Shown here one piece after another: positions 7,229 through 21,535 of a stretch of DNA of 21,722 nucleotides. The DNA comes from Paramacrobiotus metropolitanus (taxonomy: Eukaryota > Tardigrada > Eutardigrada > Parachela > Macrobiotidae), in contig NW_026570665.1 of assembly GCF_019649055.1 (NCBI RefSeq), positions 1 through 21,722 on the forward strand, read 5' to 3'. Position numbers and translations under genes: made by a program. Position 1 is the stretch's first letter. The number at the start of each line of letters is the position of its first letter. The notes below the pieces were generated by a model. It made no database searches. It had not been told where the DNA came from and saw only the letters and a list, made by a program, of their open reading frames with translations.

Positions 7229-8927
7229 TTTTGTGTACACGGACACCGTGACGAGTCTAACCGTCGACAACGTGGCCCAGACGATGTACTGCACCGAAAA
7301 GTACAACATTCCGGCGCTTTTCGATCTGTGCTCGGAATTCATCATCGGTCAACTCACGGTGGACAACTGTCTGACCGTGTTGCAGAGTGTGTGTAATGTC
7401 TCCGTATTTGCACTGGCCGGTCAATCGCAATGTGGCGTTTTGCAGGTGCAACATCTGAACGCGGATAACGTTGTGGAGAAATGTCTGGAAATGGTGGATA
7501 CCAACTCGGCTACCGTTCTGCAGTCGCAGCAGTTTCGGGAGATTTATAGCAATGACACACTGTTCGCTGACGAGCATCTCATCTATGCGGCTGTTGAGAA
7601 GTGAGCGAAAATTATGGAATTCGTTTAAAGGGAAAACTTAATTGTACAGATATATCGATGGCAGAAGACATTCTCGAATTGATAGTGTTTAACCGCCGCA
7701 GACTACCAGATTTAGAGCTCACTAGAATTTATTAAGCTTTGGCTTTCGCTTTTGAACTGTTCTTCGTACACCCTATGGAGTTTTGAGCTGATGTTGAATC
7801 TTGGCTGTTTTTCTGAAGGTGGGCGGCCAATGCCTGCAATTTACGTGGTCTGGATCCATCGCCGGCCAATCGGCGTGAGGTGCTGGGACCGGCGCTGTAC
7901 TGTGTACGATTTCGCAAATGTCGGATATTCAACTAGCGGACGGCCCGGTCAAGGTACTCGGCTCCGTACTCCTATGTAAAAACTCTACTTCGAGTAAAAT
8001 CGAAGTAGCTGTGAGCGTGTGAGGATTGGAAACGGACTGAGCAACGGTTGACTGCAACATCACTCTCGGTTCCCAGTCCGTCCAGTTTAGCAGTGCGGCC
8101 AGGGCTTATTAAAATTTGAGCCTTATAAAAATTTGTTTTTGAAACCAAAGTTTCAGTAACTTCCTAATTTCTCTGATGTGACTGGAAAAATTTCATTCAT
8201 AACATAAGAATGTAACAAGCAAAATTAAGAACGCACAGAGCCGTAGAAAAAAGTAAGGTAAGACTAAGACTCATACTAGCAGTACCTATACTAGCAGTAC
8301 CTATAGTTATACTAGAAGTATAATTATGTGAGCCATCTGCTAAAATATGCATGAAATTTTTCCATTTTATTTGCAGCACACACCATCCACAATTTCACGG
8401 TTGAAATATTTTCAGACGGATTTACTGCTCTCTGATGAGCTGCGGAATATTTACCGGTTCAAGCACGCCACGGAAAAGCCGTTCACTAATTTCGCCACGG
8501 AACCGCGCCGTGCCCTTAAGTGCCCGGCAACCTTCCAGGTTCGTCAGGCCGTGTTTTCGAAAAAGAGGAAGTAATCGCCAAGAAGTATAACAATTGGCAC
8601 GCGGCGTACATTACGGGTGTTGATGGGGAAATGTTCCGTATTAAATGGGCGGAGGATTTAAAGGCGGACAGTCGTCGTCCGGAGGAGATTGTGCGTGCCG
8701 CGGACATCCTGCAGAGTTGGCAGAAGGTGGTCGTTTTGGCTGGCACTGAGCGTTATGAAGATGATAAGCAGGCATTCTATGTGAAACGCTTAACGACGGG
8801 TTGGCATCAGGTGGCGACTTTTAAACCGATCGTCTCGGCAGCTAGGTTCGGAGAATTGGTCGTGCTCCATAACGATGTACTGCAGTGGAAAGCGAAAATG
8901 GCAGCGCGCCGTTTGCTGAATGAGTAG
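7229..8927 (+). pseudogene. Locus A: 5'-truncated, frameshifted BTB-BACK-Tudor-like gene
   Basis: Four exons align with the array pattern: 7229-7388 (end of BTB, FVYTDTVTSLTVDN), 7446-7600 and 7819-7953 (BACK), and 8416-8927 (linker plus a Tudor/SH3-like domain). Splice sites are canonical and exon 3 has the family length of 160 nt. Exons 1 and 2, which encode the first half of BTB, are missing. Exon 4 lacks 24 nt in frame compared with locus D. Exon 5 has lost one base near 7911-7918 (135 instead of 136 nt), giving a TAG at 7934. Exon 6 has lost one base at the A-run 8560-8564, giving a TAA at 8572. The other frame then runs cleanly to TAG at 8925 and encodes WHAAYITGVDG, FRIKW and RAADIL. 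If transcribed it could not give a full adaptor. Both 1-base losses could also be consensus errors in a draft assembly. Confidence 0.7.
8296..8335 (+). repeat. Short imperfect tandem repeat inside the last intron of locus A
   Basis: ACTAGCAGTACCTATA occurs twice in a row starting near 8275, followed by a third, diverged ACTAGAAGTATA copy to about 8322. It is intronic and AT-rich. The bounds are approximate. Confidence 0.4.
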
Positions 8928-9427: not shown

Positions 9428-10954
9428 CTAATCGTCGTCGGATTCAGATTCGGTTCCGTCCTCGGATTCAGAATGCCCACGCTCGCTGTCCTCAGCTTCG
9501 GTTTCGGACTGCTGGTGCTCGCCGTTTTCGGATTCCGATCCGTTCGCGGATTCAGATTCGTCCTCGGATTTAGATTCGTCCTCGGATTCAGAGTCGGATT
9601 CGTCCTTGGAATCGGATTCACACAGCACGCGCTCGCTGTCTTGGACTTCGGATTGCATACACTTGTCCTTCCCTAATTCCGATTTGGATTGTGCATTGTC
9701 ATCCTCCGCGTATTCGGGCCACCAGAACGGCATGTAACGCGACAAGGCATACAAGCAGAATAAATTCAGCTTGCTCACGTCCACGCGGGTCACATTCTCC
9801 AGCGTCCACTCGTGATTTCGGTAATGCGCCGACGGACGCGGATCGCAGGATTGGTAGTATTGTAGAACCTGCAGAATAACGTAGCAGGACTAAGCAGGTT
9901 GAGCACGTTAACTGCTCCAAGAAACGAAACAAAACATTAAATACGGATTCTTAATAACACTTTTGTAAGACCGGTTCCGTTAAGGATTATAAGCCAACCA
10001 GTTTGAATGATTTGTGCAAGCAAGGCAGTGGCTGCATGTCAGTGCCGTACCTGAATCAGTTTCTCTTTGTTCAATTTATCATCGATGTGGGAGGCCATCA
10101 GCTGGCCAATGCCACCAGCATCCAGCGGCGGCCCCTCGCAGCCCAGATGCAGCTCCAACATGTCTGCAATGTGCACCTCATCGACATGTCCCGGCGTGAA
10201 GACAGCAGCGGGAATGTCAAACGCCACCAAGCACCAGCATTGCCAGGTTTCCCAGTTTAGCAGCCCGACAACCGCATTTTTCCAGAGTAAACGATCGCAA
10301 CACGACAGCAGTTTCACTATATGCGCGGTCGTCTGCGCGAAAAGTGAACATTCTTTCCCTTGACCGGTGACCGACGACGAGATCCCCAGCGACAGCTGGT
10401 CGAGGATGATGCGGTCAAGGCGGCTGCCGGCGTCGTCCACGATCTTCCGAATAAGGTCCAACGTTTCATCAGACACTTTCAGGTCCCAGTGGTGACCGGC
10501 AGACACTTCGGGATTGCGGATGCAGACGGTGCGGGTAGCGGGGGTGAGGTGCTTGACGATGCAGCCGTACATGGCGTAATTACGGTCCCACGTTACGGGC
10601 AATGCCGGGCTGGTCTGCTGCCGCGATACAACCACATCTCGGCACAGATCTTACGACGTAAGAATGCCTTCCAACTGCTGACAGGTGCGGCGACATCGCT
10701 TTCTGTCGACGGTGTCCAGTGAATGAAAGATCTCCTTCAGCATTCTCACAGGCAATTCTAATCCGCTTCGAAAGACGATCAATGTGTTTTTGCGCCTTGG
10801 CTCGGCATCCGACACTTCGGTTGTCTGAAGTATTTCGCGGCGATGGCCCACGGCGTCCCTGGAAATGGCATCCCGGGAAGATCCTGATTCCTTGGTTGGT
10901 GAACTTTCACCTATGTCTTCGGTTCTTTTCTACTTTACGGGCTTGCGCAGTCAT
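9428..10954 (-). CDS. F-box-like protein with acidic Ser/Glu/Asp-rich tail, four exons
   Basis: I assemble four minus-strand exons: 10954-10911 (ATG), 10858-10655, 10609-10051 and 9868-9428 (TAG). They give 415 residues in one frame, with introns of 52, 45 and 182 nt. Residues about 48-90 match the F-box pattern: a leading LELPVRMLKEIF, then SLDTVDRKRC and a conserved Cys/Leu continuation. F-box proteins bind SKP1 and bring substrates to a CUL1 ubiquitin ligase. Residues about 90-326 are a folded-looking region of unknown type with scattered Trp and Cys, ending MPFWWPEYAEDD. The last ~90 residues are almost all Ser, Glu and Asp, encoded by a degenerate 6- to 18-base repeat. The 45-nt intron rests on a strong GTAAG donor; without splicing, its second codon reads TAA in frame. 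The start and the 52-nt intron (GTGAAAGT donor, TTCCAG acceptor) are the least certain parts. Confidence 0.6.
9431..9700 (-). repeat. Coding low-complexity repeat for the acidic tail
   Basis: Degenerate copies of GAATC(T/C)GA(A/G)TC-like words code for Ser-Glu/Asp runs. The other frames of both strands also show periodic peptides (for example NPRTNL repeats), which is expected of a short-period DNA repeat and does not indicate extra genes. Confidence 0.6.
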
Positions 10955-13134: not shown

Positions 13135-14575
13135 ATGTCTGATTCTACCGCGTGGGGATGGCAGGGCGCCACGAAAGGAGTTAGAGACCGTTGGGAGCAT
13201 GTCCTAGAATTTGGAAATTTCAGTGACGTGGAGTTTGTCGTCGAACAGAGCCAGAGCGAAGCCAAAATTTTCCGCGCGCACAAGTACTTCCGATGCTGCT
13301 GTGTTATACTGCAATGATGTTAAACAGTTGCAGAATAAACTCATTGGAAGCCTAGAGCCGTCTAGGTGGTGAATTATTTTGTCGTTGGTAGGCTTCTGCT
13401 GTGCATGAGTAGCGCGGTGTTTGAGACGATGTTCCGCGGGAGTATTCCGGAAGCCGGCGACAAACCTATCAAAATTTCCGACGTCACGGCGGAAACATTC
13501 GGCAACGTGTTGAGGCAAGTGGTGCTTGTTGTTGTTACTGCAAATTTAAAAATGGTACTGCTATCAAAAACTCTGTGAATGTGCTTCCAAGGCTCTAGCT
13601 AAGACGCAGCCAAAGCGTACTGCTGTTTTCCTTTAAATCGACGCAAATTTACCCGTTAATGTTTTCCGAATATTCTTTTAACTAAGACTTATTCTTTGAT
13701 GTACGTCAGTAGCTATTTGTACACGGATCGTACGGATGATATGAAAATGGAAAATGCTTTTGAAACTCTGTACTGCGCTGAAAAATACGGGATTCCGTCG
13801 CTGTTCAACCACTGCTCCCAGTTTATTGTCTGCCGGTTGGACAGCAACAACTGCTTGATCAGTCTGGAAAAGGTTCGTACTTGAAAAAGCATCACTGAAC
13901 ATTGCCGAGCAGGTCCACCGATTATAGCAGTTTTACTTACATATTTTATAGGCATTGCGCTTCGGTGCCGACAGTGTGATCAAGGGTTGCCTGGAATTCA
14001 TCGACGCCAACTGCAAAGCAGTGCTGGATACCCCAGAGTTCATAGCTGTCCGACACGAGATCCTGGAGAAGATTCTGCAGCGCAATACGTTGGCCGTGGA
14101 TGAGAATACGGTTTACAAAGCGGTCGAAAGGTACAAAACAATCAGCATTATCAATGCCTTTTTAAGCGTGTTGCAGTTCGAAGTTGTAAATGTTTATAGA
14201 TGGGCGGCGAACGCTTGTGCCGAGGCCGGAATCGACAGTTCCGCAGAAAACCGGCGTCAGGTGTTGGGAAAGGCGTTGTACCTGGTGCGCTTTCCACTGC
14301 TGACGGATGGGGAAATAGCGAATGGTCCGCTAAAGGTCAGTCGGCGTGGTACATTCTATCAAAATACGAAAACATTGCTTTTATGAATCTTGCAGAGCGG
14401 ATTGCTGTTGAAGGAGGAATTCTGCGCCATCTACGAGTATCTGTATAAGCACGGCGCCGACAAGCCGCACATTCCGTTTCCGGCTACGCCGCGCGTTCAT
14501 CTTTTGTCAGACCATCCGGTGCGACATGCCAGACAGCGACCCAGTACATTTTTTTATCTTCCGCGTCGCCGATGA
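13135..14575 (+). CDS. Locus B: intact BTB-BACK domain protein, six exons, 308 residues
   Basis: Exons are 13135-13283, 13392-13514, 13713-13872, 13952-14130, 14200-14335 and 14396-14575 (TGA). All phases agree. The BTB domain spans residues about 25-130: FSDVEFVV, FRAHK at 46-50, SSAVFETMFRG, and a phi-x-E motif I68-P69-E70 at the position that contacts CUL3 in other BTB adaptors. BACK follows at about 145-260 (VIKGCLEFID, RWAANAC, RRQVLGKALYLVRFPLL). The nearest known relatives by pattern are the BTBD2/3/6 group, but the PHR domain of that group is absent; a short basic tail ending LPRRR closes the protein. The expected role is a substrate adaptor of a CUL3 ubiquitin ligase. Intron 2 has a GC donor (AG|GCAAGT). 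Intron 4 (69 nt) is open in frame, so its retention would add 23 residues. Confidence 0.85.
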
Positions 14576-15741: not shown

Positions 15742-17564
15742 ATGCCAGCGATTCAAGAAAAACTTGCAGCCACAGGCGTCGTCAGCCGTCTGAGGAGTAC
15801 GTTGGCCACTGGAAATTATTACGACGTCGAGTTTTCTGTTGGCCGACAGTTTGGAGCGCCGAAGTTCCTGCGCGCACACAAGTACGATCGCCTGTACAAT
15901 CTGCACTGCAAAGCAGCCTGATATGAGGAACCTTCTGCCTACTCGAACGTAATTATTCGAAGTGTCTACTGTGCTGTTCTTGCAGATTGTTGTTAAGCAT
16001 CAGCAGCGACGTTTTTGTTCGGATGTTCTACGGAAATCTGCCAGATAAATGCGAGTCTCCTATTGATGTTCCTGAGATTCCGCCAGATGTCTTCCTCAAC
16101 ATGCTCAGGTGCGCACTTTTGTTCTGACAATTTATTCCAACTTGGGCGTTTAGTTTTTAGTATCCTAATAAATTATACTTTAATCTGTTGAACCATTATT
16201 TTTGTAACAACCTTTTTCTATTGTACATTTTAATTTTTAATGAGTAAATTGCGCTTGCATTTCGCATGCAGCGACTGCATAAAGTGCTTTTGGAAAATGA
16301 CGGGAAAATAATAATTCTTCATAAATCGTAATAACTTAGATATTGTGGTTTACGTTAAATGTCGTTAGTATATTAATTGATAGCTAGGCCTGTTCATTAC
16401 ATGTGTTTATTTATTTTACTGTCTTGAATTCAGTGTTTTTTATTGCTTATTTGTTCTGCTTCAGTAATTTTTTGTCTTTTTCTTCTGTAATTTAAAAAAA
16501 TTTAATACATGTTTCCTTTTTTGTTGCGCACCATTTTTGATAGTTGTAAGCGCGATTTGGACGGCTTCCACCCAATAAACGTTTCTGGTTCGCAGTTTTG
16601 TGTACACGGACGCCGTGCAGAGCCTGACTGTCGACAATGTAATCCCGACCATGCACTGCGCCGAGAAATACAATATTCCGCCGCTGTTTGATCTGTGCTC
16701 CGAATTCATCATCCGTCAGCTCAACGTGGACAACTGTCTGACTGTTCTGCAGAGCGTGCGTAATGTCAGATGTATCTAACTATCTGGCCTTGCAACAGAA
16801 TTTATTTTGATCGATCGCAACCTGGCTTTCTTCAGGTGATACATCTGGACGCGGGTGTGGTTGTGGAAAAATGCCGGGAGATACTGGACACCCACTCCTT
16901 GCCCGTACTGCAACCGCCGCAGTTTCCGGAGATGGATAATGGTACTAAACTGCGGATGATGGTGGCACGGAATACACTATCCGCTGCACGGCATCTCATC
17001 CATGCGGCCGCAGCGCCACCAGAGAACCGTGCTGATGCGACTGAAACGGCGCGAGTTGATGCGACGTCGATTGCCAAGGAGGCCAAGGAAAAAGCGGGCG
17101 CGAGCAGTGCAGCGGAAGGGGATGACGAAGAGAACCGGCAGCTCATGGCTGAAGCGGAGGCCGCGGCGGTGGCACAGCGGAAAGCCAGTTCTGATGGCAG
17201 GAGGGAGCGACGCCGCCTGCAGCGCCGGGAGAATCGGCCGGAGGTTCGGCGTCAAGAACGCCAGCGGAAAGCTGCGCGGGCCCACGACACGGAAGAGGAG
17301 CGGCAGCAGCGGCGTACCGAACATGAAGAGCGGACACAGCGGGAGCAGGCCGAAAGTTATGCGCGGTGTGTACAAGAACATTACAGCCGCTTGAAGCGCC
17401 AAAAGGCGGATGAGATTGCTGCAGCGGAGATGGAACTGGACGCTAGTAGCCAGTTCAATTTAAACTTCAATTGTCATAGAAAGGATTACTCTGGGTCAGC
17501 GTTGCCGTTACGTTCCAGTACACTATGTTTGCAGATTTATTCCGGAATACGACTTGTACAGTAA
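15742..17564 (+). CDS. Locus C: BTB protein with half a BACK domain and a charged coiled-coil tail, 383 residues
   Basis: Exons are 15742-15881, 15986-16108, 16596-16755 and 16836-17564 (TAA), with canonical GT-AG introns of 104, 487 and 80 nt. The first ATG in the open frame is 15742. BTB covers residues about 20-130 (NYYDVEFSVG, FLRAHK at 42-47, MFYGNLPD, YTDAVQSLTV). The first half of BACK follows (VVVEKCREILD to ARHLIHAA, about 148-199). There, exactly where the paralogues splice to the WA(A/M)NAC exon, the frame instead runs on into about 170 residues rich in Arg, Glu, Gln and Ala, with heptad-like spacing (RRQERQRKAA, EEERQQRR), ending in a short hydrophobic segment. The tail is GC-rich and unlike any other locus here. 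Similar Arg/Glu-rich helices occur in transposon proteins and in host coiled coils; its origin is unknown. Dimerisation by BTB is expected, but BACK function is doubtful. Confidence 0.75.
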
Positions 17565-18484
17565 CCATAATAATTAAAACATTTGAAAAGCTGTAGACAA
17601 AAATTGCGAAGTGTCACGTAATTGCTTGTAATCGAAATAATTACGCTAAATCGTAACCAACCCATCATTGTTGACTACAATGACTAATCAACTGGACAGT
17701 CTGGACTTCGGTTCGATATGAAATCAATAGAATACAGCACGGCGGAGCCACCCAAAATGTCCGGGTTTTATTTGACGAATGACTAACATATAGTTTTATT
17801 TGATTTTTCACGTTGCGGATTCATTTGCAAATGAATGTGTATTTCTACGGTATTAGGGCGAAAATTTGATCGGTTTACTGTTAGCAATGCCGGTGCATGC
17901 CCCATTCCGTAGCGCCTTCTCCCATAGCTCCCATCTTCCCATCATGGGAAGATGGGAGCTATGGGAGAAAGACTTACATGGGAATCCCATGTAAGTCTTT
18001 CTCTTCTCAGTCTGTTGGTAGATGTTCCGTTTGTTAACCACCTTTCCTACTGGCAAGTGGTATGGTATATTTATTTCAATTTTTAATACTTTTCTTGATG
18101 TTAACAAATTAGGTGATATGTAAAATAAAATTATTTCAGGCCTTCCGGCATCAACTTAAAACCGTCGGACATCCTGATGGTGTCGTATAGGGCTACCGCA
18201 CTAATGTGCGCACATACATCACCCCCGTCAGCAATCATACCAATAAGAAAAAGTCACTGTACTTGTAGTGCAAAAGTGACATAGTGTAATTTTTTTACTC
18301 CTATAATTTTAATGGGCCAGACTTGTTGCTTTTCAGTTCTCAAGCAGATGAATGTGCGAAATCCCGTATTTAAGACTGTTTTATCGATGTTTTGTGGATC
18401 TCACCTTAGACGCTTAGTGGCCGTATTTTGTGAACAGTGATTACTTTTTGAGTCACCCGTCGTATTCTAGACCTTTGAGATCGG
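17565..18484. other. Intergenic region between loci C and D
   Basis: It contains the double hairpin listed separately and no gene. An ATTAAA-type hexamer near 17571, just after the stop of locus C, could serve as its polyadenylation signal. Confidence 0.4.
17917..18003. repeat. Two overlapping near-perfect hairpins
   Basis: The first has 26-bp perfect arms at 17917-17942 and 17944-17969 with a single-base loop. The second has 19-bp perfect arms at 17965-17983 and 17985-18003, again with a one-base loop. They share five bases. The CCCAT/ATGGG word appears in both. No known RNA family fits. The loops are too tight for a normal microRNA precursor, so a DNA cruciform or a recent inverted duplication is more likely. 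Confidence 0.9.
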
Positions 18485-20645
18485 ATGTACATTAGTAAAA
18501 TGCCGAGTCGTCAAGAACCCGTTGAAAGCGTTATCAGCTGTCTGCAACGCACTCTGGCCAGTGGTAAATACAGCGACGTCCAGTTCACTGTGGGACGCCA
18601 ACTTGGTGAAGTGAAAACACTGCAAGCACACAAGTACGGGGAATCTATCGTTCTGGTTTTCAGTAATACTAGTAACGAACGCGAAAGCATCACATCAAAA
18701 GGCTAATTTTGCAGGTTGCTGTTGAGTGCCAAAAGTTTGATCGAATGTTCTACGGAAGCCTGCCGAAGCACCGATCGATGTTCCGGACATTCTGCCAGAT
18801 GCCTTCGTCAACATGCTAAGGTACGTTTAGCGAGGTTTACGGAACGGGTTCACAGTTTTTGGCCACCGCGACTTTGATATGTAACTTTGCTTGATGTATT
18901 TTGCGCATATTTCAGCTTCGTGTATTCGGATGCCGTGGAGCGTTTGGATATGGAAATCGTTTTTCAGACCATGTTTTGCGCTGTCAAGTACAACATTTAG
19001 CCGTTGTTTAATCGGTGCTCGAAGTTTATCATTGGTCAGCTGAGCCTGGAGAACTGTCTGACTGTTCTGCAGAGTGTGAGCTTACCGTACTACCGTAGTC
19101 CCGTTTGCTATTCTGCTATGGATGATACTAGTAAGAAGGAGGGTGCCATCCCGCTGTCTTATAGGTGAAACTGCTGGACGCACATATGGTTGTAGAGAAA
19201 TGCATGGAAGTCGTGGATGGCTTCTCTAAGGAGGGTTTGAAGTCGCAGCAGTTGATGACCGTTGACCGCGACATCTTGGCGATGATTCTTGTGCGTGGTA
19301 CATTGTCCGCTGAAGAGCACCTCATTTACGGGGCTGTGGAAAAGTAAGAAGTAGAGGCTATTTAAATGTAGAAACAATACTGGATATGTTGTATCTGTGC
19401 AATTATTCAAATACTACAAGGTTGAAGAAGTTACGTTTTGGCTTAAATACTCGTACCGTAGTTCGCGTCACTTATATTCCATCACGCTCAGCACATTTTT
19501 ATGATTTTTTTGAATTAAAAGCACCCTTTTAGAAACGATTGTTTGTTGTTTGTAATTTAGCTTAGTTAAAAAACATTTTCTCCAACAAGTTTTACTTCCC
19601 AGGATTTTGTTGACAAGATAAGTACTATGCATGGCAGGTAAGCTACGCAGCGGACACATGCTGTTGTGATTAATATTTTGCTGCAGGTGGGCAATGAATG
19701 CCTGCCAAATGAGCGATCTCGATCCATCGCCAGTCAACCGACGTCAGATGTTGGGTGCGGCTCTGTATCAAGTCCGATTTCCGCTGATGTCGGATGCTTT
19801 GCTGGCGGACGGCCCATTGAAGGTAAGTAGTCTCAGAATATCTTGTATAAGAATTTGTGTCCACAGTAGTCTGAATTTCAAAGCTGAGATCGGCTTCCGA
19901 AATAACGTGACAAAGATTACGTACTACAGTACCTTAATTGCGCACTAGGGGCATGTACTCTGCAATGGTGAGTGCGTTGCACGGTTTGTACAATCATAAA
20001 TTGTTTTGAATGTTTTGATTATGAAAGTATGCAGTTTGTTTGTGAAAATATGCAGTTTGATTGTGAAAGTACTACCCTAGTATGTGAAAGTACTGCAGAG
20101 TAACAAGATATGCAAATGTGTGGTAGACGGGTTTATTAACGATCGAGGAGATACGGGATATCTACCAAATGAAACATGCCAGCGTGAAGCCGGCCAGTGC
20201 TTTTGTAGCGGATCCTCGTCAGCCTGTGCACGTCTGCACAACCTTCGAGATCGGTGGGCACGTATTTCATTATGATGAAGAAGTGTTCGCTGCCAAAGAT
20301 CACGAACGCTGGTGTACCGCACGAATCAGGGGAATTGATGGTGACCAGTTCCGTATTGTCTGGTGTAAGAAGACTCAGTTTGACAGTCGTCCACCAGGGA
20401 AGATACTTCGTGCCGCGGATATCCTGAAGCCCATGCCGGGTTTGCCGTTGAAGGTCATCTTAAGTGAAAATCGCGGCAGCGCAACCTTTAAGCAAGTCTT
20501 GTCGGCGGAGGAATTGGAGTTTGTGACATCGGATGCTGTTGTCGTGACTGTCCCGTTAAACGATTTAGCAGTTCACAATCAGTATGTGACGGCGTGGAAA
20601 TTTTTGAAGGGTTTTCGGCGTGGGTTACGCGTAGACAGAGAATGA
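18485..20645 (+). pseudogene. Locus D: BTB-BACK-Tudor-like gene with damaged BTB exons
   Basis: Exons by homology are 18485-18633, 18715-18820, 18916-19075, 19165-19343, 19687-19822 and 20127-20645 (TGA). Exon 1 encodes the BTB start (KYSDVQFTVG, LQAHK; a second ATG lies at 18500). Exon 2 is 106 nt instead of 123, with losses of about 7 and 10 nt that change frame twice. Exon 3 has TAG at 18998, where the paralogues read NIP(A/P)LF. Exons 4 and 5 (BACK: VVEKCMEVVD, EEHLIYGAVEK, WAMNACQ, ALYQVRFPLM) are clean. The clean exon 6 carries a linker and a domain with FEIGG, EEVFAAK, W, GIDGDQFRIVW and RAADIL, similar to Tudor or chromo-barrel folds. As an adaptor the gene looks dead. The intact 3' half would matter only if it were transcribed from an internal promoter. 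Confidence 0.7.
20023..20098 (+). repeat. About four imperfect 21-base tandem repeats in the last intron of locus D
   Basis: The words TATGAAAGTATGCAGTTTG, TGTGAAAATATGCAGTTTG, TGTGAAAGTACTACCC and TGTGAAAGTACTGCAG follow one another just before the last exon's acceptor at 20126. They are intronic and AT-rich, with no coding role. Confidence 0.55.
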
Positions 20646-21229
20646 TCCGTTTCGTGGTTTTTTAAGTATGCAAACACCAATAATTGCGTCAGTTTGCGGG
20701 TAACTCTTGTCCTTCTTTTATTAGTGTTGTAAATTTGTAACGAGATGTTAGTAAACTAATGCTTTCCTGCTCTTTCGTTTCTTTGCTTTAACCAAATCAC
20801 TGCCAATGCGTTTTGTTCGTTCATATAACCCTATAATTTTGAATTTCAGATGTGATTACAGTTCTCGGATGTCTATAGATTCTGTATACAGTGAAAAATT
20901 AAACTGCTTCGGTGGTATGAAAATCTGAAAATATGTGAAGATACAAACATTGGACTGCGCAGTTTAGTAACCTGGAACTAAAGTAGTGATTTGACCATGC
21001 CAAATTCTTTTTATCTTTGGAAGTATCTTTTGTATCTTTGGAAGTGTTACTAATCTGTAACGAAGAAAAGGAAGAAAATATTGCCCATTTCAGCTTTCAA
21101 ATCTTTCATTCGATCAAATACAGGTTAGATTCTTAGTAGCTCCGTCCAGCGTGATTTCTGCTTCTTGTGATTGAAGAGGTCAATGTCATACGGCTCCTGC
21201 CTGCTCCTGCCACATGGAGATGGTACGGC
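20646..21229. other. Intergenic region between loci D and E
   Basis: No gene is seen. A duplicated TATCTTTGGAAGT word occurs near 21010-21045. The frame in front of locus E has no earlier ATG after the TGA near 21155. Confidence 0.4.
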
Positions 21230-21535
21230 ATGACAAGCGGAGTAAGAAAGCTTCTGAAAAATGTTCTGATGTCCGAAAGTTTTACTGATGTACAGTGTGC
21301 TTGCAGCAGAGCAACATCGGGGACATATCGCGCACACTAGTACGGTGCTGCTACAGTGCAAACTGTAAATGCAACGCGTCGAAATTGAAGTAAAGTAGTC
21401 TCATATGTCGTACAATCGACAGGCTCCTGCTTTGTGCGGGTACCGCCGTGTTCGAGACAATGTTCTACGAGAATGTGCAAGAAATCGGCGACAACCCGGT
21501 TCCAATTTCCGGGATGACGGCGGAAAGATGTTGAG
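21230..21535 (+). pseudogene. Locus E: 5' fragment of a fifth BTB gene, disrupted
   Basis: Exon 1 (21230-21339) encodes a BTB start closest to locus B. Upstream of its ATG, TWRWYG aligns with AWGWQG of B, which suggests the ancestral start was further upstream. The AHK motif is AH-stop: an A-to-T change gives CACTA|GT, and splicing to the G that opens exon 2 recreates TAG. Exon 2 (21423-21535) encodes LLLCAGTAVFETMFY and a phi-x-E-like VQE, but it has lost 10 nt near its end (113 instead of 123), shifting the frame. The normal AG|GT donor follows. Exons 3 onward would lie past the window, and the remaining 187 bases hold no match to exon 3. The copy is very probably non-functional. Confidence 0.65.

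What the first reader, a model, noticed from the sequence alone, without database searches (positions are those of the whole stretch)
20127..20645. BTB-BACK proteins with a C-terminal Tudor/SH3-barrel-like domain
Seen: the last exons of loci D and A share a domain with the pattern EEV.A.K....W..A.I.G.DG..FRI.W, then D(S)R.P..I.RAADIL, and a weaker shared ATFK block after it. Known: Tudor, chromo-barrel and PHF20-type folds show small-G.....W..A.I..ID, a later hydrophobic strand and an LR-type end. Inference: BACK is fused to a reader-like domain, so the ligase adaptor might recognise methylated proteins. I know no named family with this layout. B and C lack the domain, so it was gained or lost inside one array.
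Basis: partly seen in the sequence, partly recalled or inferred. Interest (0 to 1): 0.72.

Follow-up and report, generated by a model that had tools for sequence, protein, structure and literature searches.

The report
BTB-BACK genes with swapped C-terminal domain
Two damaged copies in a cluster of animal-type BTB-BACK genes, which probably encode adaptors that mark proteins for destruction, end in the same unnamed, protein-conserved domain in place of the usual PHR domain; it may be a small Tudor-like barrel, but nothing shows that it reads methylated proteins.

Summary
The shared domain is real. D exon 6 (20127-20645) and A exon 6 (8416-8927) share a BACK-end linker, a 55-57-residue block (27 of 55 aligned residues identical; 0 of 2000 random models as conserved) and a weak tail. 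Both exons start at the same phase-0 intron position as the last exon of intact copy B. B's BACK tail matches a recalled human BTBD6 sequence to within 8 residues of its PHR domain. So these look like BTB-BACK-PHR-type genes without PHR, with the new domain in the PHR slot of A and D.

A Tudor-like fold is possible, not shown: no credible Pfam, NCBIfam or PDB sequence match was found; AlphaFold pLDDT is 38 and 55; Foldseek rows are mostly Tudor, PWWP and SH3 barrels, but at E 0.09 or worse; profile comparison did not discriminate, since a ubiquitin control also beat its shuffles. The aromatic cage is not conserved, so methyl reading is not supported.

A and D are broken genes, C lacks the last exons, and no eukaryote collection was available to look for intact homologues. 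A new variant architecture of moderate interest.

The parts
20127..20219 (+). D exon 6, part 1: BACK-end linker TGLLTIEEIRDIYQ..KP...F...PR
   Evidence: 15/31 identical to A and 15/31 to B; acceptor AG just before 20127
20256..20426 (+). D exon 6, part 2: shared domain block (GHVF...RAADIL)
   Evidence: 27/55 identical to A by global alignment, 0 of 2000 random models as conserved; low-confidence beta strands
20427..20645 (+). D exon 6, part 3: weakly conserved tail to stop TGA
   Evidence: 15/66 identical to A, codon constraint not clear
8416..8508 (+). A exon 6, linker part
   Evidence: tblastn and frames
8547..8711 (+). A exon 6, shared domain block (reading frame changes just upstream)
8712..8927 (+). 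A exon 6, tail to stop
7229..7953 (+). A exons 3-5 (BTB end and BACK); exons 1-2 not found; frame change in exon 5
13135..14575 (+). B: intact 6-exon BTB-BACK gene, 309 aa (13135-13283, 13392-13514, 13710-13872, 13952-14130, 14200-14335, 14396-14575), no PHR and no barrel-like domain
   Evidence: Pfam BTB 4.1e-21 and BACK 2e-12
15742..17561 (+). C: exons 1-4 only; exon 4 runs on into a K/R/E-rich stretch; no exon 5 or 6 found
18500..19822 (+). D exons 1-5: BTB and BACK, with frame changes in exon 2 and TAG at 18998-19000 in exon 3
21215..21525 (+). E: exons 1-2 of a further copy, with an in-frame stop at the end of exon 1; the window ends soon after

Best explanation
The window holds a tandem array of BTB-BACK genes of the BTB-BACK-PHR (BTBD3/6-like) kind that lack PHR. 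In an ancestor of copies A and D, the last exon carried a different domain of about 57 residues, plus a 70-residue tail, in the PHR slot. The block evolved as a protein under purifying selection. It is most likely a small all-beta barrel of the SH3/Tudor type and most likely served as the protein-binding module of a Cullin-3 adaptor: BTB binds Cul3, BACK holds the module in place, the barrel picks the target. Shown: shared exon, intron phase, protein-level constraint in the block, BTBD6-like BACK tail, no PHR found, broken state of A and D. Inferred: the barrel fold, target binding, Cul3 binding. Not indicated: reading of methyl-lysine.
For: Shared exon and phase. Codon-position identity 34/42/24 of 55 and 0 of 2000 random models as conserved. 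BTBD6-like BACK tail, 41% over 58 aa, E 4e-9, ending 8 residues before PHR. No PHR by Pfam in the last exons of A, B and D; tblastn of recalled PHR gives only matches at E 0.69 or worse in the window; no PHR similarity of the tail by hhalign (score 11.5, 26 of 60 shuffles as high). Beta-strand order in both models. Of the 50 Foldseek rows listed (of 582) for the trimmed model, 21 Tudor, 15 PWWP, 10 SH3 and 1 designed SH3-like barrel; 17 of the 21 Tudor rows are one protein, SETDB1. SETDB1 and PHF20L1 Tudor in ranks 1-4 for the full exon.
Against: pLDDT 38.4 and 55.2. Best Foldseek E 0.093, and 1.4 for the full exon. No credible Pfam, NCBIfam or PDB sequence match. hhalign probability at most 11.7%, while 4 of 8 pairs of known small-barrel families reach 58-94% in the same test; ubiquitin, a control, also beat its shuffles, and three Tudor sets and chromo barrel were at chance. 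A and D are broken genes. No homologue outside the window, but no eukaryote collection was available.
Confidence: 0.5

Rival explanations
1. The domain is a true methyl-lysine reader, so the adaptor would recognise methylated proteins (a Cul3 counterpart of methyl-degron ligases).
For: Foldseek neighbours are largely Tudor and PWWP domains; PHF20L1 Tudor against D is reached by 3 of 1000 shuffles of D, against A by 21 of 1000.
Against: The PHF20L1 positions Y24, Y29, F47, W50, Y54 fall by my hand alignment (with a one-residue gap before the last) on D/H, C, W, K, F in D and K/Y, H, W, D, A in A: only one is aromatic in both. Which residues form the cage is recalled, except that a Y24W/Y29W mutant is titled. 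The alignment itself is weak.
Confidence: 0.07
2. The block and tail are a strongly diverged PHR domain, not a new domain: same place and similar length (141 residues after 'PR' in D, against about 150).
For: Position and length.
Against: hhalign against three PHR sequences: probability 0.14%, 26 of 60 shuffles as high, the reversed family scores higher. No PHR by Pfam. PHR structures are absent from the 50 Foldseek rows shown of each search.
Confidence: 0.12
3. The block is an unrelated small beta-rich domain, neither SH3-like nor PHR; the barrel neighbours come from a poor model.
For: Low pLDDT; non-significant E-values; no discriminating profile match.
Against: Two runs, trimmed and full exon, lead to Tudor neighbours at the top, and the strand order fits.
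Confidence: 0.28
4. A and D are only relics: the fused exon has no working copy anywhere in the genome.
For: Both copies are broken; the only intact copy in the window lacks the domain.
Against: The block itself is still open in both, and the array runs on towards the window end (copy E).
Confidence: 0.35

Closest known systems
BTB-BACK-PHR (BBP) proteins: BTBD1, BTBD2, BTBD3, BTBD6
   Same: BTB, BACK and the BACK-end linker to within 8 residues of PHR (family described in PMC1257465, passages read)
   Different: No PHR; an unnamed domain (A, D) or a short tail (B) in its place
Tudor domains of PHF20L1/PHF20, SETDB1, FXR2/FMR1
   Same: W..A.I..I/G pattern, predicted strand order, nearest Foldseek rows
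   Different: Not significant by sequence or fold search; aromatic cage not conserved; not known to me after BTB-BACK (recalled)
Methyl-degron ligases: CRL4 with DCAF1, and CRL4-DCAF5 with L3MBTL3
   Same: Would work alike if the domain read methyl marks (PMC11763709, passages read)
   Different: Cul4 system, not Cul3; methyl reading not supported here
BTB-BACK-kelch (KLHL, KBTBD) proteins
   Same: BTB-BACK with a C-terminal target-binding module (PMC1257465, passages; PDB matches)
   Different: No kelch propeller found

Membership tests
BTB-BACK-PHR (BBP) proteins | BTB domain | tested here: met
   Copy B, Pfam BTB 4.1e-21
BTB-BACK-PHR (BBP) proteins | BACK domain with BTBD6-like end | tested here: met
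   Copy B, BACK 2e-12; 41% over 58 aa to recalled BTBD6
BTB-BACK-PHR (BBP) proteins | C-terminal PHR domain | tested here: not met
   No PHR by Pfam in the last exons of A, B and D, nor by tblastn or hhalign
Tudor/royal family domain | Significant sequence or profile match | tested here: not met
   0 families for both exons; only PAW at E 0.15 for the trimmed A block; hhalign at most 11.7%
Tudor/royal family domain | Five-stranded SH3-like barrel | tested here: inconclusive
   pLDDT 38-55; strand order and Foldseek rows fit
Methyl-lysine reader | Aromatic cage | tested here: not met
   One of five positions aromatic in both copies by a weak hand alignment to PHF20L1 (sequence confirmed; cage list partly recalled)
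Cullin-3 adaptor | Binding to Cul3 | not testable with these tools
   Needs experiment

The most novel reading that the evidence does not exclude
An animal lineage replaced the PHR domain of BTBD6-like Cullin-3 adaptors by a Tudor/SH3-like barrel, giving an unnamed BTB-BACK-barrel class with working members elsewhere in the same genome that pick targets through the barrel.
Probability: 0.28. Interest if true: 0.6.

Novelty: new variant of a known kind. Interest (0 to 1): 0.38.

Why it matters
BTB-BACK adaptors are sorted by the module after BACK (kelch, PHR). A swap close to the PHR boundary would show that this slot is exchangeable and would add an architecture to the BTB catalogue. It would bear on methyl-dependent degradation only if a cage were found, which the present copies do not show.

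Tried and rejected
Homologue searches: viral contigs with D, with D+A and with the BTB exon, genome contigs twice and plasmids found no relative. These hold viruses, prokaryotes and plasmids, so the absence says little. Own-genome search: none is held. Diverged PHR: tested and not supported. Profile comparison with Tudor families: rejected as proof because a ubiquitin control scored above all its shuffles too. Paper searches aimed at BTB with Tudor or reader domains: searches gave no paper, searches listed 3 and 7, none of whose titles or abstract starts names such a fusion. The library is limited to open-access papers. Only passages of PMC1257465 (no occurrence of 'tudor'), PMC5531438 and PMC11763709 were read. 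Organism: not identified. A tardigrade is a guess from memory; the one tardigrade genome paper looked at has a single BTB mention. Dropped rows: the A exon-3 rows and the A-D tail row were in a wrong frame and are replaced; the first B model had a wrong start base and is replaced. The report was first sent in a form that did not fit the schema and is sent again with the same content.

Full report
Observation. The window looks eukaryotic, with introns, and no genome is held for it. A six-frame search places BTB-BACK copies A, B, C, D and the start of a fifth, E, on the + strand. The exon of the finding, 20127-20645, is an open frame of 172 residues that begins right behind an AG acceptor. It matches A exon 6 in two pieces, because A changes frame once: 45 residues of linker at 40% and 127 residues at 32%, E 2e-18. 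The central block scores 129 against a maximum of 42 in 1000 shuffles. A profile of the block, run on 935 six-frame stop-to-stop pieces of the window, finds these two, and nothing else better than E 4.6.

Constraint. Over the 55 aligned codons of the block, 34, 42 and 24 bases agree at codon positions 1, 2 and 3, and 27 residues are identical. Of 2000 random placements of the same 65 base differences, none kept as many residues, and 1702 made a stop. A hand alignment with other gaps gives 29 of 55. The tail beyond RAADIL is weak: 15 of 66 identical, above 300 of 300 shuffles by global score, but no clear codon constraint (407 of 2000 random models reach it). The ATFK match is reached by 34 of 1000 shuffles.

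Gene structure. Copy B is intact: six exons, one GC-AG intron, 309 residues, Pfam BTB 4.1e-21 and BACK 2e-12. In A, B and D the last intron lies at the same place in phase 0, before TDLL, SGLL and TGLL. B's protein ends 26 residues after the shared PR, without the domain. Exon 3 identities: A-C 46/55, A-D 35/55, C-D 36/55, B to each 25/55. So B is the most distant of the four by this exon, and whether B lost the domain or branched off before its gain is open. No exon 5 or 6 was found in C at E up to 1 in the right frame.

Broken state. D changes frame twice in exon 2 and has a TAG at 18998-19000 in exon 3; in A, exons 1-2 were not found, and the frame changes in exons 5 and 6. So neither carrier of the domain in this window is an intact gene. 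B is intact over six exons, which argues against a generally error-ridden assembly; this is an inference.

Where the domain sits. A recalled human BTBD6 C-terminus, which Pfam scores as PHR at 3e-48 with the domain starting at its residue 65, aligns with B at 41% over 58 residues, E 4e-9; the alignment ends at its residue 56. Its first 70 residues score 96 against a maximum of 33 in 100 shuffles. The best bare-BTB match of B in the PDB is BTBD6, and KBTBD4 ranks first overall. BBP proteins are described as BTB-BACK with a C-terminal PHR expected to act as the substrate-recognition module (PMC1257465, passages). The block of A and D therefore stands in the PHR slot. It does not look like PHR: hhalign probability 0.14%, 26 of 60 shuffles as high.

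Fold. Pfam gives no family for the two exons at E up to 10; for trimmed blocks, only PAW at 0.15 for A. NCBIfam gives none. PDB sequence searches give no credible match: one chance-level hit each for D alone (E 0.64) and the D+A profile (E 0.38), none for the trimmed profile. AlphaFold from four rows gave pLDDT 38.4 for the whole exon, and from three rows 55.2 for 71 residues, with strands 4-7, 10-13, 18-23, 26-36, 39-44, 50-53 and a helix at 55-60. Foldseek on the latter found 582 rows with E up to 10 and none below 0.001. Of the 50 shown, I count 21 Tudor (17 of them one protein, SETDB1), 15 PWWP, 10 SH3, one designed SH3-like barrel and 3 others, best E 0.093. The full-exon model gave 136 rows, with SETDB1 and PHF20L1 Tudor in ranks 1-4 at E 1.4 to 1.6, mixed further down with retinoic-acid-binding proteins and others. 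Models this weak cannot prove a fold.

Profile tests. Against eight small-barrel families and three unrelated controls, the block scored best with FMR1 agenet (0 of 150 shuffles as high, probability 11.7%) and PHF20 (1 of 150, 9.2%). Of the rest, SH3 had 7 of 150, PWWP 15, KDM4/53BP1 41, PCL 73, SMN 83 and chromo barrel 99. Of the controls, ubiquitin had 0 of 150 (3.1%), the B1 domain 6 and CspA 144. With the whole tail, PHF20, FMR1 and ubiquitin each had 0 of 60, at 5.2, 4.7 and 1.8%. Of eight pairs of known small-barrel families in the same test, four reach 58 to 94% and four (PHF20-FMR1, SMN-FMR1, PWWP-SMN, SH3-SMN) stay below 5%. The test therefore misses true relatives and passes a control. 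Pairwise, PHF20L1 against D is reached by 3 of 1000 shuffles and against A by 21 of 1000.

Cage. On the PHF20L1 Tudor sequence (confirmed), positions Y24, Y29, F47, W50 and Y54 fall, by my hand alignment with a one-residue gap before the last, on D/H, C, W, K, F in D and K/Y, H, W, D, A in A. Only one is aromatic in both. The list of cage residues is recalled, apart from Y24 and Y29 being named in an entry title. The methyl-reader idea is thus not supported.

Mechanism. Most likely: BTB binds Cullin-3, BACK holds the C-terminal module, and the barrel-like block binds a protein target. BTB, BACK, position and constraint are shown; binding and fold are inferred from what is written of BBP and BBK proteins. 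Cul4 ligases that act on methylated targets exist (PMC11763709, passages), so a methyl-dependent adaptor is conceivable, but nothing here points to it beyond fold neighbours.

Limits. No eukaryote collection could be searched; the scans of viral, prokaryote and plasmid records found nothing. Novelty in print was probed only by the searches.

Noticed in passing
10654-10929 (-): An F-box (Pfam E 5e-5) on the opposite strand inside the BTB array: a second kind of ubiquitin-ligase adaptor gene next to the first.
   Followed up: partly
16764-17564 (+): C exon 4 runs without a stop from BACK into a long K/R/E-rich stretch (RRENRPEVRRQERQRKAARAHDTEEERQQRR...), no Pfam match at a meaningful level; possibly an inserted element or another new tail.
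   Followed up: no
13515-13520: B intron 2 has a GC donor (GAG|GCAAGT), which keeps the frame.
   Followed up: yes
17917-18003: Two perfect palindromes back to back: arms of 26 nt (17917-17942 / 17944-17969) and of 19 nt (17965-17983 / 17985-18003), each with 1 nt between the arms.
   Followed up: partly
9428-9889 (-): Low-complexity acidic repeat frame (SESED-type), only weak Pfam matches (E 0.29 or worse).
   Followed up: no
21215-21525 (+): A fifth copy, E, with an in-frame stop at the end of exon 1; only exons 1-2 lie before the window end.
   Followed up: partly
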